A DNA stretch of 64,000 nt from an uncultured bacterium (GTDB taxonomy: Bacteria > Elusimicrobiota > Elusimicrobia > Elusimicrobiales > Elusimicrobiaceae), in assembly GCA_949294085.1 (NCBI GenBank), contig CASFFX010000006.1, forward strand, positions 166,256 through 230,255, in the 5' to 3' direction. The notes beneath the pieces are model-generated. The model was not told the DNA's origin. It did not search any database and saw only the letters and a program-made list of their open reading frames with translations. A program made the position numbers and the translations under genes. Below are positions 1,402 to 55,998 of this stretch, piece by piece (position 1 is the stretch's first letter; the number at the start of each line of letters is the position of its first letter).

Positions 1402-2634
1402 ATGGAAAAGACAAAAATACTTTATTTCATTACCCGTATGGATCAGGGCGGCGCGCAAGCCAGCGTGCTGATGACGATAAAGACCATCAACAAACAGCAG
1501 TTTGAAACCTACCTGGCCACCGGCCCCGGCGGCCGCTTGGACGGACGGCTGAAAAACGATTCGCGCAACGTGTTTTTTATTTCCGCTTTGCGCCATGATA
1601 TTCGCCCGAAATATTTCTTTCACGATTTGGTGGCCCTGGTGCAAATGGGCCGCGTGCTGCGCCGCGTCAAGCCCGATATCGTGCATACCAACGCTCCCAA
1701 AGCCGGGGTGCTGGGGCGCCTGGCGGCGCGGATTTTTTGGCGCAAGGCCAAAGTGGTGCACACGTTCCACGGGCTGGGATTTGCCAAAGAACACGGCGAA
1801 AAACAATTCAAATTTTTTGTGGCGGTGGAAAAGTTCTGCGCCAAATTTACCGATGTGCTGGTGTTTGTTTCCCGCCGCAACGCGGCCGAAGCCAAACAGC
1901 TGGGCATTGGCAAAGGCGTCCGTACGGAGCTGATTCGCGCGGGGGTCAATTTCAATCCCATTTTACCGCTTAAGTTTGACCCCGTTGCCAAGAAAGCTTC
2001 CCTGAAAATTCCGGCCAACGCCAAAGTGGTGCTGGCTTTGGCCAATTTCAAACCGCTTAAGAACCCAATTCACTTTGTGCTGGCGGCCTACAAGGTGCTG
2101 AGCCAAATGAAAAACGTGTATTTCATTTTCACGGGGGAAGGCCCGCTGAAGGAAACGGCGGAAAACCTGGCTAAAAATTTGAGCATTGAAAAACAGGTCC
2201 TCTTCCCGGGGTGGCGCAATGACCCGCTGGAATTGTTGGCCATCAGCGATGTATATGCCAGCGTTTCGCTGCGGGAAGGGCTGCCGATGTCGCTTTTGGA
2301 AGCGATGTCTATGCGGGTGCCGGCCGTGTGTTATGACGTGGACGGCATTGGCGAAGTGGTAACCAACAACAAAACGGGCTTTTTGGTGGCGCCCAACGAC
2401 ATTAATACGTTTGCCGATAAATTAAAAGTGCTGCTGCGCCACACGGCGCTGCGGGAACGGTTTGAAGCCGCCATAGACCACCGCGATTTTTCGGAATTTA
2501 CGGCGTCCACCATGGTCAAAAAACAGGAACGCCTGTACAGAAGCTTGGTGCCGCCCACCAAAAAGAACGGCGGGAAAAGACGCTTTTTTAGAAGACGCAG
2601 ACATTTCAAAAAATTTAACCCTGGAGAAAAATAA
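1402..2634 (+). CDS. GT4-family glycosyltransferase (GT-B fold)
   Basis: A 410-residue GT-B glycosyltransferase. The N-terminal domain begins with ITRMDQGGAQAS, the usual glycine-rich acceptor-side loop of GT4 enzymes, followed by HTNAPKAGVLGRLAAR. The C-terminal domain has the nucleotide-sugar binding pattern EGLPMSLLEAM, an EX7E motif, followed by PAVCYDVDGIGEVV. It starts directly after the preceding stop and overlaps the next gene by one base (TAATG), so it is translationally coupled. The C-terminus is very basic (KKNGGKRRFFRRRRHFKK), which may aid binding to the acidic membrane face. A role in envelope polysaccharide or glycolipid synthesis is inferred; the sugar is unknown. Confidence 0.85.
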   Translation: MEKTKILYFITRMDQGGAQASVLMTIKTINKQQFETYLATGPGGRLDGRLKNDSRNVFFISALRHDIRPKYFFHDLVALVQMGRVLRRVKPDIVHTNAPKAGVLGRLAARIFWRKAKVVHTFHGLGFAKEHGEKQFKFFVAVEKFCAKFTDVLVFVSRRNAAEAKQLGIGKGVRTELIRAGVNFNPILPLKFDPVAKKASLKIPANAKVVLALANFKPLKNPIHFVLAAYKVLSQMKNVYFIFTGEGPLKETAENLAKNLSIEKQVLFPGWRNDPLELLAISDVYASVSLREGLPMSLLEAMSMRVPAVCYDVDGIGEVVTNNKTGFLVAPNDINTFADKLKVLLRHTALRERFEAAIDHRDFSEFTASTMVKKQERLYRSLVPPTKKNGGKRRFFRRRRHFKKFNPGEK

Positions 2635-3869
2635 TGGATTACGCGATTAACGAAATGGAGCAGGAAGTCCTAAACGCGACGCGGGAATTTGCCCAAAAAA
2701 AGCTCAAACCGCTGCGCGCGGAAATGGACGCCAAAGAACAATTTTCCAAAGAGATGTTGGAAGAATACCGCAAATCCGGCATGATGGGCCTGTGGCTGCC
2801 CGAAGAATACGGCGGCTTGGGCGGGGGGATTACCTGCCTGGCTATGGCTTTTGAAGAACTTTCCCGCGTGTGTGCGGGCTTGGCGCTTACGCCCGGCACG
2901 AGTGCGCTGGGGGGAATCCCGATGTTTTTGGCGGCCACGAAGGAACAGCGCGAACGCTGGTGCCCCGATTTGGCCAGCGGCAAAAAGCTGTGGGCCTTTG
3001 CCTTAACGGAGCCCGAAGCCGGGTCGGACGCGACCTCCCTCAAAACGACCGCCATTAAAGACGGCGATTTTTACGTGGTAAACGGTACGAAACATTTTAT
3101 TTCTACCGGCAAGGAATCCGATTTCTACACCGTGGCCGTCAACACCAATCCGGCCCGCGGTGCGCGCGGCATTTCGCTGTTGGTAATTGAAAAAGGAACG
3201 CCCGGTTTTTCCTTTGGCAAAAAGGAAGAAAAAATGGGGATTCGCTCCAACCCGACGTATGAATTGATTTTTGAAAACGTCCGCGTACCGAAGGAAAATC
3301 TGCTCGGCAGTGAGGGGCGCGGGCTGTTGTATTTGCAGGAAACCCTGGATTATTCCCGCCCCGGCGTGGCGGCCCAGGCCGTGGGGATTGCGCAAGGCGC
3401 GCTGGACGAGACGATTCCCTACCTGCGCACGCGCAAACAGTTTGGCCAGCCGATTATTACGTTCCAGGCGCTGGGGCACAAAGTGGCCGAATTGGCCGCC
3501 AAGACGGAAGCCGGCCGCGCGCTGGTGTACAGCCTCACGCACCGCATGGACCTGGAGTACCTGCCCGCGGTCAAAAACGCGCTGGCCAACGGTACCACCG
3601 TGCATGACGAGCTGAAAAAACTCAAAGGCCAACGCTGGACCAAGTACAGCGCCGAAGCCAAGCTGTTCTGCTCCAATGTGGCGATGGAAGTGGCCGACGA
3701 GTGCGTTACGCTGTGCGGCGGGATTGCCTATATGCGCGATTTCCCGCTGGAAAAATACATGCGGGATGCCAAAATCACCCAGATTTACGAAGGAACCGTG
3801 CATATTCAAAAGAACGAAATCATCACGGCTCTTATCAAAGAATACGCCGCAAAAGGCGACGAGGAGTAA
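2634..3869 (+). CDS. Acyl-CoA dehydrogenase (butyryl-CoA dehydrogenase type)
   Basis: A 411-residue FAD flavoprotein with the full ACAD layout: helical N-terminal domain, middle beta domain with ALTEPEAGSDATSLKTTA (FAD/substrate loop), and C-terminal helical domain. The catalytic-base region IYEGTVHIQ keeps the conserved Glu of short-chain ACADs. An insertion of about 30 residues lies near residues 305-335. It is followed directly by etfB and etfA, so electrons from the enzyme go to, or come from, ETF. In anaerobes this trio often runs butyryl- or enoyl-CoA reduction, possibly by electron bifurcation; the direction cannot be told from the sequence. Start ATG overlaps the upstream TAA and follows a GGAGA ribosome site. 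Confidence 0.9.
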   Translation: MDYAINEMEQEVLNATREFAQKKLKPLRAEMDAKEQFSKEMLEEYRKSGMMGLWLPEEYGGLGGGITCLAMAFEELSRVCAGLALTPGTSALGGIPMFLAATKEQRERWCPDLASGKKLWAFALTEPEAGSDATSLKTTAIKDGDFYVVNGTKHFISTGKESDFYTVAVNTNPARGARGISLLVIEKGTPGFSFGKKEEKMGIRSNPTYELIFENVRVPKENLLGSEGRGLLYLQETLDYSRPGVAAQAVGIAQGALDETIPYLRTRKQFGQPIITFQALGHKVAELAAKTEAGRALVYSLTHRMDLEYLPAVKNALANGTTVHDELKKLKGQRWTKYSAEAKLFCSNVAMEVADECVTLCGGIAYMRDFPLEKYMRDAKITQIYEGTVHIQKNEIITALIKEYAAKGDEE

Positions 3870-6362: not shown

Positions 6363-6821
6363 TTAGCGTATCAGATAGGCTTCTTCGCCGTCTAATTCCA
6401 CCGGGGAATCTTCGCCCGATTGGCTTTGGCAAAAATCTTTCCCGGCGTTGTTTACGCCAATGCAGGCCAGGCGCATAAAGTTGTCCGTCGTGGTCAGTTT
6501 ATAAGCGATGTGGGGGGAAGCGTCGGTTTGCGTGAACAAAATTTCCCAGCAGGGTTTGCTGGCGTCTGCCCCGGGGCGGCAAATCACTTGGCCCGTAAAA
6601 TCTTTGAGCTTTGCTTTTTGCAGACTGGCCGTCATCCGGTCGGCTTGGGACTGGGTCATAAATCGGCCGGTGGCAAAGTTTTTCTGCCGGCCCCACAGCA
6701 GCACCACCTCCGTCATCCGGGCGCTTTCCACCGCGTTGAAATAGGACGGCACGGCAATCGCCGCCAAAATGCCGATAATCAGTATTACGACCAAAATTTC
6801 TATCAAGGTAAATCCTTTCAT
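6363..6821 (-). CDS. Type IV prepilin-like protein
   Basis: A 152-residue prepilin with a minimal leader: MKG followed by [25 protein letters not shown], Glu at +5. The globular domain has four cysteines (VICRPG, PCWEIL, LACIGV, DFCQSQ). It ends acidic. The gene is the last of a four-gene minus-strand operon that starts with an AlbA_2 protein; it begins 10 nt after the stop of the 50-aa membrane protein and has a GAGG ribosome site. Why a pilin would sit with a SUI1 factor is unclear. It is more like a minor pilin or T2SS GspH/GspG-type pseudopilin in length, but cannot be assigned. Confidence 0.88.
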   Translation of the reverse strand: MKGFTLIEILVVILIIGILAAIAVPSYFNAVESARMTEVVLLWGRQKNFATGRFMTQSQADRMTASLQKAKLKDFTGQVICRPGADASKPCWEILFTQTDASPHIAYKLTTTDNFMRLACIGVNNAGKDFCQSQSGEDSPVELDGEEAYLIR

Positions 6822-21911: not shown

Positions 21912-21923
21912 GCGGGAGTGCCT

Positions 21924-22439
21924 ATGCAAACAAAAAAGGGGTTTACCTTACTAGAAGTGTTGATTGTGGTGGTGATTGCGGTGTCGGTAATGGCGTTTTC
22001 GGTGCCGGCTTATAAAAAAACGCAGGACCGCAACCGCTTTATGGCGGCCCAAGGGGTGCTGATGGACTTGGGAAGCGGCTTGCGCTCCTTGCGCGCGGAT
22101 CTTAACTTCAATTATCCCACCGAAGCCAAATTGGTCCAGGCTTCTTGGCAGACATTGACGATGACGCAGGACGCCGATATTACCTCCACCAATGCCAATG
22201 CCGCGTTGTTTGCGCGGAAATATATGTCCCCGATTCCGTTTGACTACGCCAATTCCTACAAAGGGTATCACTACTACTTATGCCCGGAAAAAACGGCTTC
22301 TTCCACCGGGTGCTGCCAAAGCAACTCGGATGTAGTCGCCTGTATGTATGATTCGGAATATGCTTCCCGCGCCACGAAGGGACAATACTATGGCGCCGTC
22401 TATTTGACCGACGGAACCGTACAGCGTGTCAGTAAATAG
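21924..22439 (+). CDS. Type IV prepilin-like protein 1 of pilus locus
   Basis: A 171-residue prepilin. Leader MQTKKG is cut before FTLLEVLIVVVIAVSVMAFSVPAY, with Glu at +5. The globular domain contains a CC pair (STGCCQSNSDVVAC) and a nearby YYLCPE cysteine. ATG at 21924 was chosen over the in-frame GTG at 21918 because it is followed by the basic leader and sits 5 nt after GGGAG. First of six prepilin-like genes in series after pilC. It may be the major pilin or a FimT/PilE-type subunit; length is typical of major pilins. Confidence 0.88.
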   Translation: MQTKKGFTLLEVLIVVVIAVSVMAFSVPAYKKTQDRNRFMAAQGVLMDLGSGLRSLRADLNFNYPTEAKLVQASWQTLTMTQDADITSTNANAALFARKYMSPIPFDYANSYKGYHYYLCPEKTASSTGCCQSNSDVVACMYDSEYASRATKGQYYGAVYLTDGTVQRVSK

Positions 22440-22446
22440 TTTTTGC

Positions 22447-22475
22447 TTGACAAAGCCCCAAAATAGCGCAATACT
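22447..22475 (+). promoter_or_regulatory. Possible internal promoter before prepilin 2
   Basis: TTGACA at 22447-22452, 17-bp spacer, AATACT at 22470-22475. The -35 is perfect, the -10 poor; it would allow extra pilin expression. Confidence 0.45.
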
Positions 22476-22495
22476 GTAAAGAAGGAATACTTGTT

Positions 22496-22957
22496 ATGAA
22501 GAACAATCGGAAAGGCTTTACGTTGTTGGAATTGCTGATTGCCGCTACCATTATTGGCATTTTGGCGGTATTTGCCACCATTGCCTATCGCAACGGTGCG
22601 GCGGATACGCGTTTGGCTGGGGCTAAGGCTAAATTGGAAATGCTGGCCGGTGCGGTGCAAAAGTATCAGTTGGATCCGGCGGCCTGCCCCTCCCTGAATT
22701 CTTCCAGCGTATTGACTATTTCCGGTTTGATTAATTGCGGCTTTTTGGAAGAAGGTACCTGGTTTAACGCAGACCAGCATTTTGTGTTCTATATTTGTGC
22801 CGGGAACCCCAGTTCAAGCTACACCTGCCCGACGAGTGCGCTGGCGTGTATGACGGGTGATAGTGCCAAACTCCCGGGTCGGTACAATAAAAGCAACGGT
22901 TATTTTTATTGCGTGAACGCAAACGGAACAATTCGTGAAAATATGGGTGCGGAGTAA
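22496..22957 (+). CDS. Type IV prepilin-like protein 2
   Basis: A 153-residue prepilin: leader MKNNRKG, then FTLLELLIAATIIGILAVFATIAY with Glu at +5. The helix continues to a short globular domain with five or six cysteines (AACPS, NCGF, YICAGN, TCPT, ACMT, YCVN), suggesting several disulfides. It has an internal promoter candidate upstream and an AAGGA ribosome site. A candidate for a highly expressed pilin because of that promoter, but this is inference. Confidence 0.88.
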   Translation: MKNNRKGFTLLELLIAATIIGILAVFATIAYRNGAADTRLAGAKAKLEMLAGAVQKYQLDPAACPSLNSSSVLTISGLINCGFLEEGTWFNADQHFVFYICAGNPSSSYTCPTSALACMTGDSAKLPGRYNKSNGYFYCVNANGTIRENMGAE

Positions 22958-22963
22958 ACGAGT

Positions 22964-23536
22964 ATGAAGAAAGGGTTTACGCTGATGGAAATGCTGGCGG
23001 TTATTTTGCTGATTGCGGTGGTGGTATCTATGGCGGTGCCGGTTTTCCGCACGGTACGCTATGAGGTAAAAAACAGCCAAGCCAAAACGGCGGCCCGCAA
23101 ATTGGCCGAAGCCATGCGTTCCTATTATCAAGTAAGCCGCGGGTTAGGGGTGAAGCAAGAGTGTTTTTCGCCCACCACCAGCTCGGGGAAGAGCTTGGTT
23201 TTGACGGCGGCTTCGAATTGCGCGTCTCCCACATCGGATGGAATTCCCTACCAAAACACCAGCGTAACCAATGCTTCCCGCCCCTCGGTGGGGCAGTTGT
23301 TTGCATGCGGGTATTTGTCCTCGCGGGATTTTTTAGGAATTCCGTATGAATTTTGTACCTGTAACCCCATAGCGGGAGGGGCCCAGCCTACCCAATGCCA
23401 AATTTCCGAAGCCACGGGTACGAATACGCCGTTTGTGGTGCTGCGCGGGGTAAGCGGGGCCGGTAGTCAATTTACCAAAGCTTCTTATCATATTTATGTG
23501 GATCAAAGCATGGTGGCACAAGACACGGCCGAATAG
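22964..23536 (+). CDS. Type IV prepilin-like protein 3
   Basis: A 190-residue prepilin: MKKG leader, then FTLMEMLAVILLIAVVVSMAVPVF with Glu at +5. The globular part has Cys at QECFSP, SNCASP, FACGYL, FCTCNP and QCQIS, and a long Ser/Thr-rich middle. It starts 6 nt after the previous gene and is followed 10 nt later by the PilV-like gene. Probably a minor pilin. Confidence 0.85.
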   Translation: MKKGFTLMEMLAVILLIAVVVSMAVPVFRTVRYEVKNSQAKTAARKLAEAMRSYYQVSRGLGVKQECFSPTTSSGKSLVLTAASNCASPTSDGIPYQNTSVTNASRPSVGQLFACGYLSSRDFLGIPYEFCTCNPIAGGAQPTQCQISEATGTNTPFVVLRGVSGAGSQFTKASYHIYVDQSMVAQDTAE

Positions 23537-23546
23537 GGGTGTAGCT

Positions 23547-24044
23547 ATGAAACGTATTTTAAGGCAAAAAGCGGGTGTAACCATTTTGGAAGGATTGATT
23601 TCGATGGGGCTATTGGCCATGGTAGCGGCAGCGACGTTTGGCGTGCTGCTTTCGGTGTCCCGCAAGGCCAGCAGCCCGGATTTGCGGGAATCCATGGTCT
23701 TGGCGGTGGAACGCGCGTATGAACAGCTGCAAATGTACACGCCGGATTTGACCTCGGTCAACAACCCGAATATCCCGTCGGATTTTCAATACGGTTTGTG
23801 CGGGGGGGATTCTTCGCCGCTGGCCACCGGGCAGACGCATATGATTAATTGCCTGCTCCCGCCGATTTGTGATAAAGCCACTTCCAGCTTTTCTTATACC
23901 ACGGGGACGGATCAAACGAGTGTGAATATTCCGTTTGTGGCCAAGTATGGCGTTAACGGTATGGTAACAGATTGGGGCTCCGCTTCCAACGCAACGGTGC
24001 GAAGCGTTAAATTTTCTATCACGTGCAATGGGTTTACGCTATGA
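23547..24044 (+). CDS. PilV/GspI-like minor prepilin
   Basis: A 165-residue prepilin-like protein with leader MKRILRQKAG then VTILEGLISMGLLAMVAAATFGVLL, Glu at +5. Val at +1 rather than Phe is common in PilV/GspI-type minor pilins. The position, first of three consecutive genes with PilV, PilW and PilX-like N-termini, supports a tip-complex role. Its stop overlaps the next ATG (ATGA). Confidence 0.75.
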   Translation: MKRILRQKAGVTILEGLISMGLLAMVAAATFGVLLSVSRKASSPDLRESMVLAVERAYEQLQMYTPDLTSVNNPNIPSDFQYGLCGGDSSPLATGQTHMINCLLPPICDKATSSFSYTTGTDQTSVNIPFVAKYGVNGMVTDWGSASNATVRSVKFSITCNGFTL

Positions 24045-24775
24045 GAAATAAAAAAGGTTTTACGTTAACAGAGATTTTGCTGGCGGTGATGATTGTAGGC
24101 ATCATTGGGGTGGCGCTTGCGTCTCTGACGACGGCCGCTTCGCGCGAATCGGGGGTAGGCCGCAGTAAAGTCATCTTGCGCAATAATCTTTCGTTAGCCA
24201 TGCGTCAGCTGCGGGAAGACATCCACACTTCTTCCCGAGTTCTGTATGTACGCGGGGTGATAGACTCTATTTCTCCAGGGGCTGTTACGCCGTTGCTGGT
24301 GTTGGTCAAAAATATGGATGTGGACGGTAATAAATACCGAAGCTCTATCAATATTCAGTATATTACCTATTGTTTTGAAGCGGGCTCTACGACGGCTACG
24401 CCTTCGGGGGCGCTCTCCGGCGGGACGATTTACCGCCGTGAAAGTTATTCTGCCCCTAGCTGGAATTCTACGACGCCTGCGTGCGGAGTGCCTTCGTCCG
24501 ATTCAACTTTTGAAGTATTTTTGCATAACGTTAAATTTATTCCGCCCAATGGAGTTTCCGGCTATTCTACGTATTATCCGGTGCCCTTGTTCCGCCTGCC
24601 TGGGTTGACGGGCGTGTATAGCGACAAAGACGATTCAGCCTATTACGACCGCCACAAAGACCTGGGCAGCGTGCTGCGGGTAAATTTGATTACGGAACTG
24701 AACAGCAAGCCGATTGTCAATGATGTAGTAGAAGAAACTTTTGTGCTGCCCAACGGTTTTTGGGTAGAAATATAA
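24041..24775 (+). CDS. PilW/GspJ-like minor prepilin
   Basis: A 244-residue prepilin-like protein, the longest in the series. Leader MRNKKG, then FTLTEILLAVMIVGIIGVALASLTTAASRESG with Glu at +5, and an early SLAMRQLREDIHTSSR segment that is characteristic of PilW/GspJ proteins. The start at 24041 was chosen because it gives an ATGA overlap and leaves the short basic leader; earlier in-frame ATG would add MQWVYA only. Likely a pilus-tip subunit. Confidence 0.78.
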   Translation: MRNKKGFTLTEILLAVMIVGIIGVALASLTTAASRESGVGRSKVILRNNLSLAMRQLREDIHTSSRVLYVRGVIDSISPGAVTPLLVLVKNMDVDGNKYRSSINIQYITYCFEAGSTTATPSGALSGGTIYRRESYSAPSWNSTTPACGVPSSDSTFEVFLHNVKFIPPNGVSGYSTYYPVPLFRLPGLTGVYSDKDDSAYYDRHKDLGSVLRVNLITELNSKPIVNDVVEETFVLPNGFWVEI

Positions 24776-24786
24776 GGGGATTTAGT

Positions 24787-25215
24787 ATGTGGAAGAACAA
24801 AAAAGGGGCCGCCTTATTGCAAGTGTTGCTGGTTACCGCCATTTTGGCCGGTATGGCTACGATGTTGCTGCGGGCCAGCCTGTCGCGCACGACGGCTGCA
24901 CGCAAAACACGCCGTACGGTTTCGGCCCAGCTGTTGGTCCAGTCGTGCATGGCGGAAGTGAATACGCTGTGGTCGCTTAAATCAACGGAAACTTTTGCAC
25001 GGGATCTCAGACAATGCCTTATGTACTGCGATTCCTCGGATGTTACTTCCACCTGCCCGGCCGCCAACTCGGTCCGGACGCATGAGTGCTCGTATGATTT
25101 GAACGGCGAAACGTATAAGGTGTTGGCGGAATTTACGACGACTTCTCCCACCGAGGACAGCAGTACCAAGTGCAAACTGGTCTATACCATTACTTCCGAT
25201 AACGATACATTGTAG
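24787..25215 (+). CDS. PilX/GspK-like minor prepilin lacking Glu5
   Basis: A 142-residue protein with leader MWKNKKG followed by AALLQVLLVTAILAGMATMLLRASLS. The +5 residue is Gln, not Glu; loss of Glu5 is known for GspK/PilX-type subunits that cap the tip. The remainder has six cysteines in SCMAEV, QCLMYCD, TCPA, ECSYD and KCKLVY. It completes a PilV-PilW-PilX-like trio. Shorter than most GspK proteins, so assignment is by order and N-terminus only. Confidence 0.68.
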   Translation: MWKNKKGAALLQVLLVTAILAGMATMLLRASLSRTTAARKTRRTVSAQLLVQSCMAEVNTLWSLKSTETFARDLRQCLMYCDSSDVTSTCPAANSVRTHECSYDLNGETYKVLAEFTTTSPTEDSSTKCKLVYTITSDNDTL

Positions 25216-28590: not shown

Positions 28591-29301
28591 TTATTTTTGC
28601 ACTTTTTTGGCCGGTACCGGCGTCAGGCGGGATTTGAATTTGCAGCGGTGTTCGCCGTTAATCAAATTCTTTTCATCGCGCAGGTTTTTGCCGCAGTCCG
28701 GGCAGTTTACGGTGCAGTCAGCCCCTTGTACGGCGGAGCATTTTTGGTTGTTCTCCACAATAGCTTCCCCGCAGTAAATGCAATATTTGGTTTCTTCTTC
28801 TACTTTGCACTCGTGCGTGGCGCCGTGGTAGCGTTCATCCGTCGTGTAGGCGTGGCCGCATTTCGGGCAGTGAGAAGGAAACGTTTCGTCTTGTTGTTTA
28901 GCCGGTTGCACTTGGTGGCTGGTGCAAAGCCCCGTATAATGCGCGGCCGGGCAATGCTGACCGTTGCCCTCAATGGCTTGGCCGCAGCGGGTGCATTTGG
29001 GCCAAGAAGGATCTTGCGCTTTGTTTTTGAGCAATTTGTAGTAGTAAGCTAAATCGTGCTGAGCGTACCCTCTGTGGGCGTCTCTGTCTTGCTGGAGCAG
29101 CACTTCCGCTTGCGTGAGCAAGGCCGGATCGTATTTGGGGGTTACGGCGCGTTTTACGGCGCGCTTTACGCCGCGTTCAATGGCGGCAGAAATTTGTTTG
29201 CTTGCCTTTTGGTCTCTGGCGTGGGTGTCTGCTTGGGCAAAGGCCGGAGCGGTAAAAGCTACGGCGGTTAGTATGGCTAACATACGGGTAATCGTTTTCA
29301 T
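28591..29301 (-). CDS. Exported Cys-rich zinc-ribbon-like protein (P1)
   Basis: A 236-residue protein with a clear signal peptide ending AFA|Q. A helical basic segment (about 30-100) is followed by four cysteine modules: CTRCGQAIEGNGQHC...C (B type), CPKCGHAYTTDERYHGATHEC (C type), CIYCGEAIVENNQKC...C, and CPDCGKNLRDEKN...HRC. Each has CXXC plus a second Cys/His pair, the geometry of zinc ribbons, yet it is exported. The B and C modules are close relatives of those in the neighbouring P2 protein. No known family recognised; metal binding or disulfide-linked folding is inferred. Upstream lies copy A of the AGGYCC array; the ribosome site is GGAGG. Confidence 0.8.
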   Translation of the reverse strand: MKTITRMLAILTAVAFTAPAFAQADTHARDQKASKQISAAIERGVKRAVKRAVTPKYDPALLTQAEVLLQQDRDAHRGYAQHDLAYYYKLLKNKAQDPSWPKCTRCGQAIEGNGQHCPAAHYTGLCTSHQVQPAKQQDETFPSHCPKCGHAYTTDERYHGATHECKVEEETKYCIYCGEAIVENNQKCSAVQGADCTVNCPDCGKNLRDEKNLINGEHRCKFKSRLTPVPAKKVQK

Positions 29302-29351: not shown

Positions 29352-29379
29352 AGTCTAAATAAATTTCGCTTTTTTGCAA
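29352..29379 (-). promoter_or_regulatory. Candidate promoter of P1
   Basis: On the minus strand TTGCAA (29379-29374), 16-bp spacer, TAGACT (29357-29352); the -35 overlaps the end of array copy A. Confidence 0.45.
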
Positions 29380-29437
29380 AGGGCCTTTGGGCCTAGGCGT
29401 AAGCGGGAAAAGGACCTAAATCAAAAATGGGCCTTTT
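29377..29437 (-). promoter_or_regulatory. AGGYCC-box array, copy A
   Basis: Read on the minus strand from 29437, AGGCCC/AGGTCC/AGGCCC/AGGCCC boxes start at offsets 4, 21, 44 and 52. Copy B has its boxes at the same four offsets without a gap. The array ends 20 bp before the candidate -10 of P1. Looks like a multi-site operator; weak RNA pairings are also possible. Confidence 0.7.
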
Positions 29438-29446
29438 ATATCCGGC

Positions 29447-29472
29447 AAAGCCCCCGCGAAACGGGGGCTTTG
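29447..29472 (-). terminator. Terminator of P2 gene
   Basis: Stem AAAGCCCCCG/CGGGGGCTTT with a TTTCG-type loop; no long T tract on the minus strand. Confidence 0.75.
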
Positions 29473-29480
29473 CAAAAGGC

Positions 29481-30416
29481 TTAGCGGTGCGTGCAATTGT
29501 GCGTGGCGCCGTGATATTTTTCGTCCGTCGTGTATTGGTGGCCGCAGTTCGGGCAAAAGGAGGCTTTGGCCGCTTGCTCGGCGCGGGCAGCTTCGGCTTT
29601 TTTAATGGCTTGCTCTTGGGCGGGCGTGGCGGCACAGGGGGCCGTATAGTCGGCCGCTTGGCAATGCTGGCCGGCTACAAAGCTTTTCCCGCAGCGGTAG
29701 CAAGTGGGCGCTTGGGAGATGGGCGCGGCGTAGCAATGGGTGTCCAAATCGGCCGGGCATTTGGCGTTTTTATCGGTAATGGGGTTGCCGCAGCGGGCGC
29801 ATACGGGTTTACCTGTGGCGGGAGCGGCATAGCAATGGGTGTCCAAATCGGCCGGGCATTTGGCGTTTTCATCGGTAATAGGGTTGCCGCAGCGGGCGCA
29901 GGTTTGATAATTGGCGGCGTTGTGCGGATCCCCGCCTTTGAAATAGGAATTAACAGCAACTTCCGTTTTCGGGGTTTCTTTGACCACGGTGCAGAGGGCC
30001 GCATAGTCGGCCGCTTGGCAATGCTGGCCGGGGAAAACTTCCTTTCCGCAGCGCACGCACACCGGCGTTTGTGCGGCGGCGTAGCAATGGGTGTCCAAAT
30101 CGGCCGGGCATTTGGCATTTTTGTCGGTAATGGGATTGCCGCAGCGGGCGCATACGGGTTTATCTGTGGCAGGCGCGGCGTAGCAATGGGTGTCCAAATC
30201 GGCCGGGCATTTGGCGTTTTTATCGGTAATGGGGTTGCCGCAGCGGGCACAGGTTTGGCCGCGGCGGTGCGCTTGTTGGGCGCGGACGGCAGCGCGTTCT
30301 ATTTTAGCCTGCAAAATTTTTGTTTTTTGAGCGGCATTTGCCTCTTGCTGAGCAAACGCCGGGAACGACAAGACCAAAGTCAGTACGGCGAGTATAACCT
30401 TCGTGGTGTTTTTCAT
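29481..30416 (-). CDS. Exported modular Cys-repeat protein (P2)
   Basis: A 311-residue protein with a signal peptide ending AFA|Q and a basic helical stretch. The rest is modules in the order A-A-B-A-A-B-C. Module A is CARCGNPITDKNAKCPADLDTHCYAAP (shown here in two pieces: CARCGNPITDKNAKC and PADLDTHCYAAP), about 33 residues per repeat. Module B is C-x-RCGK...GQHCQAADY...C. The C module is CPNCGHQYTTDEKYHGATHNC, shared with P1. In total 27 cysteines, nearly all in CXXC-type pairs. The A-A-B super-unit is duplicated within the gene. No known family recognised. It could store or bind metal, or form a disulfide-rich surface layer. Copy B of the AGGYCC array lies upstream. Confidence 0.8.
   Translation of the reverse strand: MKNTTKVILAVLTLVLSFPAFAQQEANAAQKTKILQAKIERAAVRAQQAHRRGQTCARCGNPITDKNAKCPADLDTHCYAAPATDKPVCARCGNPITDKNAKCPADLDTHCYAAAQTPVCVRCGKEVFPGQHCQAADYAALCTVVKETPKTEVAVNSYFKGGDPHNAANYQTCARCGNPITDENAKCPADLDTHCYAAPATGKPVCARCGNPITDKNAKCPADLDTHCYAAPISQAPTCYRCGKSFVAGQHCQAADYTAPCAATPAQEQAIKKAEAARAEQAAKASFCPNCGHQYTTDEKYHGATHNCTHR
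29722..30258 (-). repeat. Tandem DNA repeats encoding module A of P2
   Basis: Four near-identical copies of about 80 nt (about 29722-29801, 29822-29900, 30081-30159, 30178-30257), with the two in each pair spaced 99 nt apart. Only a few third-position changes separate them, so the duplication is recent or homogenised. Confidence 0.85.
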
Positions 30417-30494
30417 AAATCTCCTTAGAATTTGACAGCTTTTACGTCTATTTACTGCTTCTTACCCATACTGTAAATCTTTTCCGGGGCAAGA

Positions 30495-30555
30495 AAAAGG
30501 GCCTTAAGACCTATATTTTCCTCAAAAAAAGACCTAGGTTATGCCTGGGCCTTTT
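30495..30555 (-). promoter_or_regulatory. AGGYCC-box array, copy B
   Basis: From 30555 on the minus strand: AGGCCC at offset 4, AGGTCT at 21, AGGTCT at 44, AGGCCC at 52, the same spacing as copy A. It ends 20 bp before a TACAGT (30475-30470) that could be the -10 of P2. Its first half can also fold into a hairpin followed by T7. Confidence 0.7.
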
Positions 30556-30556
30556 T
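30522..30556 (-). terminator. Possible terminator overlapping array copy B
   Basis: Minus-strand GGCCCAGG CATAA CCTAGGTC with one mismatch and one wobble, followed by TTTTTTT, just after the stop at 30575. Confidence 0.55.
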
Positions 30557-30574
30557 GCTGTTTTAAGGAATATT

Positions 30575-31093
30575 TTATTGCATCATGGCGGATTGAATTT
30601 CCGTATTCAAAATTTCCGTTACTCTGCCCAACAGCAACCCTTTGCCCTGGGCATAGACTACGGCGGAAATCATCGTCATATAGACGCCGGTTTCTTCGTC
30701 CACGGACGAAGCCGGATAAACGGTCTGATTCTTAAGCAGCAGCTTGGTCAAGTTGGACAGTTGCGGCGTCAGCTCTTCGTACACTTCGTCGGACGTTTTT
30801 TGAATTTTGTTCAAAATCGCCGGGATTTTGCTTTCCAGCAGCTGTTCAATTTCTTTATCCGTGTCCGTCATGGATTTCAAATCGCGGTGCGCGTCAAACA
30901 CCATGAGCCCCATGGTAAGTGCCTGCTGGGTGTTTTTCAGCACCTGCGGGTCAATGTCCTCTTCGTTCACGGCGGAAGCCGCGGTAGAAACCGATTCTTC
31001 AATAAGCGCACTGTTGCTGGACGAATTGCCGGCAAAAGCGGCGGTAGAAACGGCTAGAACGGCAAACAACGCAAAAAGCTTTTTGAATTTCAT
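30575..31093 (-). CDS. Exported helical protein of unknown function
   Basis: A 172-residue protein with a signal peptide (MKFKKLFALFAVLAVSTAAFA). The mature part is predicted helical, with no cysteine, and shows no family pattern that I recognise. It contains LESKIPAILNKIQKTSDEVYEELTPQLSNLTKLLL, an amphipathic helix. The start at 31093 follows GGAGGG and is far better than an earlier in-frame start. It is the first of three consecutive exported-protein genes with AGGYCC arrays and is divergent from clpP. Likely periplasmic. Confidence 0.72.
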   Translation of the reverse strand: MKFKKLFALFAVLAVSTAAFAGNSSSNSALIEESVSTAASAVNEEDIDPQVLKNTQQALTMGLMVFDAHRDLKSMTDTDKEIEQLLESKIPAILNKIQKTSDEVYEELTPQLSNLTKLLLKNQTVYPASSVDEETGVYMTMISAVVYAQGKGLLLGRVTEILNTEIQSAMMQ

Positions 31094-31124
31094 ACAGCCC
31101 TCCAAGATGCAAGTTCCTTCTTTC

Positions 31125-31153
31125 CTAATATATCTTAATAAATAGCCGTTCAA
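31125..31153 (-). promoter_or_regulatory. Candidate promoter of the 172-aa exported protein
   Basis: Minus-strand TTGAAC (31153-31148), 17-bp spacer, TATTAG (31130-31125), immediately downstream of array copy C. Confidence 0.55.
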
Positions 31154-31156
31154 AAA

Positions 31157-31217
31157 ACCAGGGGCTTTTGGACCCAGAGGACCTATTTGCCAGGACCCAA
31201 AAAATTTGGGTCTTGCA
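31157..31217 (-). promoter_or_regulatory. AGGYCC-box array, copy C (divergent clpP region)
   Basis: From 31217 on the minus strand: AGACCC near offset 5, GGGTCC 20, AGGTCC 34, GGGTCC 43, AGCCCC 52. The GACCCAAA/TTTGGGTC pair forms a perfect 8-bp inverted repeat. The other edge lies 24 bp from the clpP -10 box, so it could serve both genes. Confidence 0.62.
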
Positions 31218-51425: not shown

Positions 51426-51908
51426 ATGAAACAGGGTTTTACGTTAATAGAATTATTAGTCGTGGTGTTAATCATCGGCATACTGGCGGCGGTGGCGCTG
51501 CCGCAGTATGAAAAAGCGGTGCAGAAAGCCCGCGTAACCGAGGCGATGGGGATCCTCAAAAAGATGTCCGACAATGTGGATATGTGTTTGTTAGCTGGAG
51601 TAGAGGATTGTACGGATCCGGACATTGTATTTGAAGGGTTGGAACATTTACCGGGAAATTCCGGTTATTCCTTTTCTACCAAAAATTTTAATTATCTATG
51701 GACTCTTGCTCCAATTGCAATGGATAAGCAAGAAGATTATGCCTTGGTATTGGTTTCAAAGCCATTAGAAGAAGCTGTCCTGCATGAGATTGATTGGTCG
51801 GCGGGGCGTTGGTGTGAGCCTGCGACGGACAAAGGAAATTCTTTCTGTAAAAGTTTAAGCGGCCAGCCTTCTACTACAATGAACGGAATGACGGTTTACC
51901 CCTTCTAA
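51426..51908 (+). CDS. Type IV prepilin-like protein (orphan pilin)
   Basis: A 160-residue prepilin: MKQG then [36 protein letters not shown], Glu at +5. Four cysteines in [12 protein letters not shown] and [14 protein letters not shown] could form two disulfides. The 44-nt block 51477-51520 is identical to 5821-5864 of another orphan pilin, while the 3' two thirds are unrelated. AGGAG lies before the ATG. Confidence 0.9.
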
Positions 51909-55488: not shown

Positions 55489-55998
55489 ATGATTAACCAA
55501 GCAAACGTAAAATGGAAAAGAAATCGGCAGGGGTTTACTCTTTTGGAACTGTTAGTGGTGGTATTAATTATTGGCATTTTGGCGGCGATTACTTTGCCTC
55601 AATACAGGGTGGCGGTGGCCAAATCGCGTTATGTGCAACTGATGACGGCCGGCGACGCTATGGCCCGGGCAGAGGAAATGTTTTATATGGCAAACGGCAG
55701 ATATACGGCGGACTCGGAAGAGTTAGACGTTAGCATGCCGGAGGGCAAATTTGCTTTAGATTTGGCGGTTCATGAGGATAGGGGTCATGCGGCGGTAACG
55801 GTTACAAACCGGGATTTGGGGCTGGAACATGTGGTGTATTTTGAGCACCATGTGGGTTATCAGGCGGGCAGCCGCTTCTGCCGCGTGCGCGGCGCTTCCA
55901 GCGACAGCTATTTGCACAACCTCTGCAAATCCTTAACCAATACAACAACTCCTTCCGCAACGGCAGAAGGTATTTACGTAGAATATAAATTTCAATAA
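55489..55998 (+). CDS. Type IV prepilin-like protein (orphan pilin)
   Basis: A 169-residue prepilin with leader MINQANVKWKRNRQG then [36 protein letters not shown], Glu at +5. Only two cysteines (RFCRVRG, NLCKSL). It stands alone with its own terminator, like the orphan pilins at 5734 and 51426. Its leaderless-type promoter resembles that of the mini-ORF at 51297. Confidence 0.9.
   Translation: MINQANVKWKRNRQGFTLLELLVVVLIIGILAAITLPQYRVAVAKSRYVQLMTAGDAMARAEEMFYMANGRYTADSEELDVSMPEGKFALDLAVHEDRGHAAVTVTNRDLGLEHVVYFEHHVGYQAGSRFCRVRGASSDSYLHNLCKSLTNTTTPSATAEGIYVEYKFQ

What the first reader, a model, noticed from the sequence alone, without database searches (positions are those of the whole stretch)
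29377..31217. Multipartite AGGYCC-box array shared by consecutive exported-protein genes
Upstream of each of three consecutive minus-strand exported-protein genes lies an array of GGNCC boxes. In copies A (29377-29437) and B (30495-30555) the boxes start at offsets 4, 21, 44 and 52 of a 61-nt frame, an exact match with no gaps although the bases between differ. Copy C (31157-31217) has boxes at 5, 20, 34, 43 and 52. In A and B the array ends 20 bp before the likely -10. The fixed geometry implies a dedicated regulator, possibly an activator standing in for weak -35 boxes. A structured RNA is an alternative, since GGYC NNNN GGCC pairings are kept between copies.
Basis: partly seen in the sequence, partly recalled or inferred. 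Interest (0 to 1): 0.82.

Follow-up and report, generated by a model that had tools for sequence, protein, structure and literature searches.

The report
Shared on-switch for exported-protein genes
The repeated DNA boxes are a real promoter control site, found upstream of dozens of genes for exported proteins across gut and environmental Elusimicrobia, and they most likely bind one conserved signal-responsive regulator that switches these genes together.

Summary
Copies A and B share box spacings of exactly 17/23/8 bp; copy C follows the same rule (15/23/9). A model trained without box 1 finds about 24 sites (E<0.01) in the 1.5-Mb genome. 25 of 27 downstream ORFs have strict signal peptides, against 16 of 53 window genes. 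All 66 genomes of the genus carry 6-33 sites, as do most of two sister genera. A strict two-palindrome form occurs in three families of the class and never in backwards controls. Boxes 3+4 form a palindrome, TAGGYCY-WW-RGRCCY, centred near -42.5. A TANNNT -10 box begins exactly 37 nt from box 3 at 62% of sites (0-13% at other offsets). At many sites ATG begins at the predicted +1 (leaderless). RNA pairing is rejected: the two variable bases are independent (p=0.87). Best explanation: a class-II activator array bound by a NarL-type response regulator. The best candidate, RR-C6, is nearly universal in the order and keeps the DosR DNA-contact signature KTxKN; the operator resembles the DosR box. 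Regulator identity and signal are inferred, not shown. No earlier description was found in the library searched.

The parts
29429..29434 (-). Copy A, box 1 (AGGCCC; right-arm-like half-site GGCCCA)
29412..29418 (-). Copy A, box 2 (TAGGTCC), 17 bp from box 1
29389..29395 (-). Copy A, box 3 (TAGGCCC), 23 bp from box 2; left arm of the proximal palindrome
29381..29385 (-). Copy A, box 4 (GGCCC), right arm of the proximal palindrome, 8 bp from box 3
29352..29357 (-). Copy A, predicted -10 (TAGACT), 37 nt from box 3
28591..29301 (-). Gene under copy A: exported Cys-rich protein, 236 aa, zinc-ribbon-like
30547..30552 (-). Copy B, box 1 (AGGCCC)
30530..30536 (-). Copy B, box 2 (TAGGTCT), 17 bp from box 1
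30507..30513 (-). Copy B, box 3 (TAGGTCT), 23 bp from box 2
30499..30503 (-). Copy B, box 4 (GGCCC), 8 bp from box 3
30470..30475 (-). Copy B, predicted -10 (TACAGT), 37 nt from box 3
29481..30416 (-). Gene under copy B: exported protein, 311 aa, repeated zinc-ribbon-like CxxC units
31208..31213 (-). Copy C, box 1 (AGACCC)
   Evidence: alignment with G072
31193..31198 (-). Copy C, box 2 (GGGTCC), 15 bp from box 1
31179..31184 (-). Copy C, extra box (AGGTCC) not part of the common geometry
31170..31175 (-). Copy C, box 3 (GGGTCC), 23 bp from box 2
   Evidence: R1 hit E=0.11
31161..31165 (-). Copy C, box 4 (GCCCC), 9 bp from box 3
31132..31137 (-). Copy C, predicted -10 (TAAGAT), 38 nt from box 3 (one extra base between boxes 3 and 4)
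30575..31093 (-). Gene under copy C: exported protein, 172 aa, no Pfam match; orthologue in G072 has a perfect array

Best explanation
The array is the operator of a DNA-binding transcription activator at sigma-70-type promoters. Shown by sequence: boxes 3+4 form a 16-bp inverted repeat, TAGGYCY-WW-RGRCCY, centred about 42.5 bp upstream of the predicted start and next to the -35. A second half-site (box 2) or full palindrome lies 22-24 bp further upstream, and box 1 lies 15-18 bp beyond that. The -10 is at a fixed distance, and the genes downstream are almost all exported proteins, plus a few short terminated transcripts. Inferred: dimers of a NarL/LuxR-type response regulator bind the proximal palindrome and the upstream site side by side and recruit RNA polymerase from the class-II position, as DosR/DevR does. 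The best candidate is RR-C6 (G000:C6:94073-94768), phosphorylated by the neighbouring hybrid histidine kinase. The signal is unknown; an envelope or host-contact cue is a guess.
For: Motif reality: 60 matches against 14 backwards-control matches in 66 genus genomes; 66 double-palindrome hits against 0 controls in 341 genomes; a model that never saw box 1 recovers it in 10 of 27 non-training sites against 1% at random positions. Promoter phasing: TANNNT starts at +37 from box 3 in 62% of 156 thinned sites, 0-13% at other offsets; ATG offset 49 in 16 of 156 sites with none at 44-48, exactly leaderless. Regulon: strict signal peptide in 25/27 own-genome targets against 16/53 window genes, p=5e-8; 156/160 by a looser test across genomes. 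Conservation: all 66 genus genomes and sister genera g11, g14. Regulator: only two DNA-binding response regulators in the genome, both GerE type. RR-C6 is in 138/149 genomes of the order and, among listed matches, confined to the class that holds every motif-bearing family. Its nearest solved relatives are VraR and DevR/DosR. DosR contacts DNA through Lys179, Lys182 and Asn183 (PMC4082495), corresponding to the KTxKN kept in 19 of 20 sampled RR-C6 orthologues. The DosR box TTSGGGACTWWAGTCCCSAA (PMC2275270) shares the GG.CYWW frame, and DosR promoters have closely packed boxes with the proximal one overlapping the -35 (PMC3029386).
Against: No binding or expression data exist. RR-C6 is also present in g12 and g13 of the family and in f9-f14, where no site passed the thresholds, so its presence is not sufficient. 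G113 and G142 have sites but no RR-C6 hit; in those genomes only the best-ranked candidates were scored, so this may be a false negative. Neither RR gene has an array of its own. Other transcription-factor families in the genome were not surveyed. Two of the six inner half-site positions differ from the DosR box. Activation rather than repression rests on position alone.
Confidence: 0.68

Rival explanations
1. Same operator and promoter, but bound by another regulator: RR-C3 (the other NarL-type regulator) or a non-response-regulator transcription factor.
For: RR-C3 is also of GerE type, with a neighbouring kinase, and is orthologous across family f1 where sites are richest.
Against: Sites occur in f2 and f15, but f2 hits to RR-C3 are only about 40-50% identical, the level of paralogues. 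Its recognition helix reads NTIHV instead of KTxKN. Non-RR factors were not surveyed.
Confidence: 0.28
2. The site is a repressor operator or dual-use site rather than an activator site.
For: Sites close to the -35 can act by steric block; class-II position alone does not prove activation.
Against: The palindrome ends just upstream of the -35 instead of covering the promoter core. Two tandem sites upstream and a weak -35 (T at +14 94%, then degenerate) fit activation better.
Confidence: 0.15
3. A structured RNA (riboswitch or leader) formed by the GGYC...GRCC arms.
For: Arms are complementary in many copies, and boxes 1+2 can form a hairpin in some.
Against: The array is upstream of the -10 and of leaderless starts. 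RNAalifold gave no double-sided change. Y and R are independent, with 23 C-A mismatches among 156. Minus-strand fold z-scores of A and C are near 0, B -1.7. No Rfam match reached its gathering score.
Confidence: 0.02
4. Boxes 1+2 are an intrinsic terminator of the upstream gene and only boxes 3+4 belong to the promoter.
For: Some copies read AAAAGGCCTA...TAGGCCTTTTTT, a terminator-like shape.
Against: Many copies have mismatched arms or A-runs instead of T-runs. Box 2 keeps 22-24 bp spacing to box 3. Spacing 24 goes with a full second palindrome (37/46 against 5/110). Copy A has a separate hairpin, apparently a terminator, at 29444-29479.
Confidence: 0.05
5. Chance or duplication: A and B resemble each other because the two zinc-ribbon genes are duplicates.
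For: The products of A and B are related (53% identity over 74 aa).
Against: Boxes are kept while spacers differ; unrelated exported genes across the genus share the array.
Confidence: 0.01

Closest known systems
DosR/DevR box arrays of Mycobacterium tuberculosis (NarL-family response regulator, dormancy regulon)
   Same: Palindromic operator with a central WW and GG.CY half-sites; closely packed multiple boxes; proximal box next to the -35; regulator with KTxKN recognition helix (PMC4082495, PMC2275270, PMC3029386).
   Different: Half-site TAGGYCY instead of GGGACT; upstream partner often reduced to a half-site plus box 1; targets are exported proteins, not hypoxia genes; different phylum; candidate kinase is a receiver-HisKA-HATPase protein without an evident sensor domain.
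VraR/LiaR cell-envelope stress response regulators
   Same: Closest solved structures to RR-C6 by sequence (1e-39); envelope theme of the targets.
   Different: Recognition helix KTVKT rather than KTxKN; no LiaF/LiaS-like membrane kinase next to RR-C6.
ComA of Bacillus subtilis (from memory)
   Same: 6-N4-6 inverted repeat near the -35 with an additional half-site.
   Different: Different half-site sequence; membership not tested.
Sigma-E regulon with MicA/RybB small RNAs (from memory)
   Same: Exported-protein control together with small RNAs.
   Different: Here the promoters look sigma-70-like and an activator is inferred, not an alternative sigma factor.

Membership tests
Class-II activator-dependent sigma-70 promoter | -10 element at fixed distance downstream of the operator | tested here: met
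   TANNNT at +37 in 62% of 156 sites
Class-II activator-dependent sigma-70 promoter | Operator centred near -41.5 | tested here: met
   Palindrome centre about -42.5 by position; start inferred from -10 and leaderless ATG
Class-II activator-dependent sigma-70 promoter | Measured transcription start and activator dependence | not testable with these tools
   needs dRNA-seq and reporters
NarL/FixJ-type response regulator regulon | Inverted-repeat operator in 7-2-7 format | tested here: met
   TAGGYCY-WW-RGRCCY
NarL/FixJ-type response regulator regulon | NarL-type regulator encoded in every genome with the operator | tested here: inconclusive
   RR-C6 in 138/149 genomes of the order; a few site-bearing genomes lack a hit, possibly by candidate cut-off
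NarL/FixJ-type response regulator regulon | Regulator binds the operator | not testable with these tools
   needs a binding assay
DosR/DevR regulon | Operator matches TTSGGGACTWWAGTCCCSAA | tested here: not met
   Frame and WW centre shared, but the half-site reads TAGGYCY; 4 of 6 inner positions agree
DosR/DevR regulon | DNA-contact residues Lys179, Lys182, Asn183 | tested here: met
   KTIKN/KTVKN in RR-C6 orthologues
Cis-regulatory structured RNA | Covarying base pairs | tested here: not met
Cis-regulatory structured RNA | Lies inside the transcript | tested here: not met
   Array is upstream of the -10 and of leaderless starts

The most novel reading that the evidence does not exclude
A single ancient two-component switch controls a fast-changing, lineage-specific set of exported proteins across the class Elusimicrobia, together with C-rich small RNAs, using tandem DosR-like palindromes, with many targets made from leaderless mRNAs. 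New exported genes join by gaining the fixed-geometry promoter.
Probability: 0.5. Interest if true: 0.85.

Novelty: new variant of a known kind. Interest (0 to 1): 0.74.

Why it matters
Almost nothing is known about gene regulation in Elusimicrobia, which live in rumen, gut, soil and groundwater and are mostly uncultured. This gives, from sequence alone, an operator, a promoter map with predicted starts, a regulon of mostly unknown exported proteins, and a named candidate regulator that can be tested in vitro. It also offers a way to pick out the exported proteins these bacteria switch on together, which may include those used on hosts or neighbours.

Tried and rejected
RNA structure: fold z-scores, RNAalifold, Rfam and independence of the variable bases all argue against it. 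A first alignment including box 1 misaligned sites with different box 1-2 spacing, so box 1 was left out of the model and used as a held-out test. Terminator reading of boxes 1+2: rejected by phasing. Simple duplication of A and B: rejected by genome-wide spread. Window-only statistics were weak at 3 mismatches (10 of 100 shuffles reach 2), so whole-genome and genus-wide controls were used. Literature searches for Elusimicrobi* with promoter motif, regulon, two-component, leaderless and NarL found no earlier description; only open-licence papers are held.

Full report
What was checked. The window is G000:C6:166256-230255 of a 1.5-Mb genome; DNA records with the same motif are named Elusimicrobiaceae, Elusimicrobium or Elusimicrobia. 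On the minus strand copies A and B have boxes RGGYCY at spacings 17/23/8, identical although the bases between differ. Two boxes of B are GGTCT, so GGNCC is too narrow. Copy C has 15/23/9 plus an extra box.

Is it chance? Within the window the exact four-box pattern occurs only at A and B; with three mismatches allowed shuffles give 0.55 on average and 10 of 100 reach two, so the window alone is not decisive. In the whole genome a loose three-box pattern hits only A, B and a third site D, spacing 16/23/8, again upstream of an exported-protein gene; the backwards control hit once per strand. Over 66 genomes of the genus a tighter pattern gave 60 matches against 14 control matches, six of these in a single genome. 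In the 60 sites, box 2 to box 3 is 22, 23 or 24 bp in all, and box 1 to box 2 is 15-18 (the pattern allowed 21-25 and 14-18).

Anatomy. Alignment of 46 sites and 156 thinned sites shows boxes 3+4 as TAGGYCYWWWGRCYCT, an inverted repeat TAGGYCY-WW-RGRCCY. In deeper lineages the upstream box is also a full palindrome, TAGGYCYWWWGRCCTA, and lies 24 bp away; where the spacing is 22-23 the upstream right arm is lost (37/46 against 5/110). Among sites selected without any use of the -10, TANNNT starts at exactly +37 in 62%, with 0-13% at other offsets. A T at +14 (94%) followed by T/G marks a weak -35 at 17-bp spacing. Start codons peak at +49 in 16 of 156 sites, with none at +44 to +48: ATG then begins 6 nt after the -10, the expected start point, so these mRNAs are predicted leaderless. 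This fixes the promoter map without experiment; it remains a prediction.

Regulon. A sequence-only model of box 2 to -10 (R1) finds 38 own-genome matches up to E=10, 24 below 0.01. A, B and D were in the training set; the others were not. In the 27 non-training hits among the top 30, box 1, which the model never saw, is present in 10, against 1% at random positions (p=7e-14). Of 27 hits with an ORF of 80 aa or more, 25 have a strict signal peptide and no further membrane helix, against 16 of 53 window genes, about half of those being pilin-like (Fisher 5e-8). The proteins are diverse: zinc-ribbon-like, M20/M28 peptidase, SpoIID, ChaN/Tiki-like, ankyrin, receiver-like, and mostly no Pfam match. 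Signal-peptide calls are from a home-made rule, not SignalP.

Distribution. With R1 at E<=0.001, all 66 genus genomes have 6-33 sites, g11 and g14 of the same family have 1-16, g12, g13 and g15 none, and the other family of the order has 0-4 per genome. A strict double palindrome occurs in 44 of 341 genomes of the phylum, in families f1, f2 and f15 of one class, with no backwards-control hit at all. Arrays at orthologues of A, B and C keep the boxes while spacers change.

Regulator. The genome has nine receiver-domain matches; only two proteins join a receiver to a DNA-binding (GerE) domain. RR-C6, next to a receiver-HisKA-HATPase kinase, is found in 138 of 149 genomes of the order, almost always once, at 60-99% identity, and among 336 genomes of the phylum its listed matches all lie in the class that holds the motif. 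RR-C3 is orthologous only in family f1. RR-C6 is closest to VraR and DevR/DosR among solved structures. DosR contacts bases through Lys179, Lys182 and Asn183 (PMC4082495; sequence in PMC5861037); the same KTxKN stands in 19 of 20 sampled RR-C6 orthologues, and the exception (G105, NTVKN) is a genome without detected sites. RR-C3 has NTIHV. The DosR consensus TTSGGGACTWWAGTCCCSAA (PMC2275270) shares the WW centre and the GG.CY frame. DosR promoters have closely packed boxes with the proximal one overlapping the -35 and cooperative binding (PMC3029386). The operator is therefore DosR-like in form but not a DosR box.

What is shown and what is inferred. Shown: the motif, its geometry, its promoter phasing, its distribution and its association with exported proteins. 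Inferred with good support: DNA operator and activator position. Inferred with moderate support: RR-C6 as the regulator. Guess: the inducing signal.

Small RNAs. Some arrays drive no protein but short C-rich transcripts ending in a strong hairpin: own genome near C6:247511 (L138), L084, L088, and a second type in L163, L204, L216. Hairpin z-scores are -4.9 to -6.3 and no Rfam family other than tRNA matches these loci. They contain stretches such as ACCCTCC that could pair with ribosome-binding sites. This is a lead only.

Noticed in passing
G000:C6 near 247511 (L138); L084, L088, L163, L204, L216: Short C-rich, hairpin-terminated transcripts (putative small RNAs with anti-Shine-Dalgarno-like stretches) lie directly under the same promoter array; no Rfam match.
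   Followed up: partly
L276:613-1824 and 1938-3125 (G000:C9): Two proteins with signal peptides and C-terminal receiver-like (PF00072) domains, an odd combination because receivers normally work in the cytoplasm; the second is directly under an array.
   Followed up: partly
own genome and loci, ATG at +49 from box 3: Many regulon genes appear to have leaderless mRNAs, with ATG at the predicted transcription start.
   Followed up: partly
window 29481-30416: Exported protein built of repeated CARCGNPITD(K/E)NAKCPADLDTHCYAA zinc-ribbon-like units.
   Followed up: no
window 21918-25215, 51426-51908, 55489-55998, 6363-6821: Several type IV pilin-like (GFTL) genes, some in a cluster.
   Followed up: no
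window 29444-29479: Strong inverted repeat between gene B and array A, likely the terminator of gene B, separate from the array.
   Followed up: no
L319 (G105:C15): The RR-C6 orthologue in this site-less genome has Asn in place of the first DNA-contact Lys (NTVKN).
   Followed up: no
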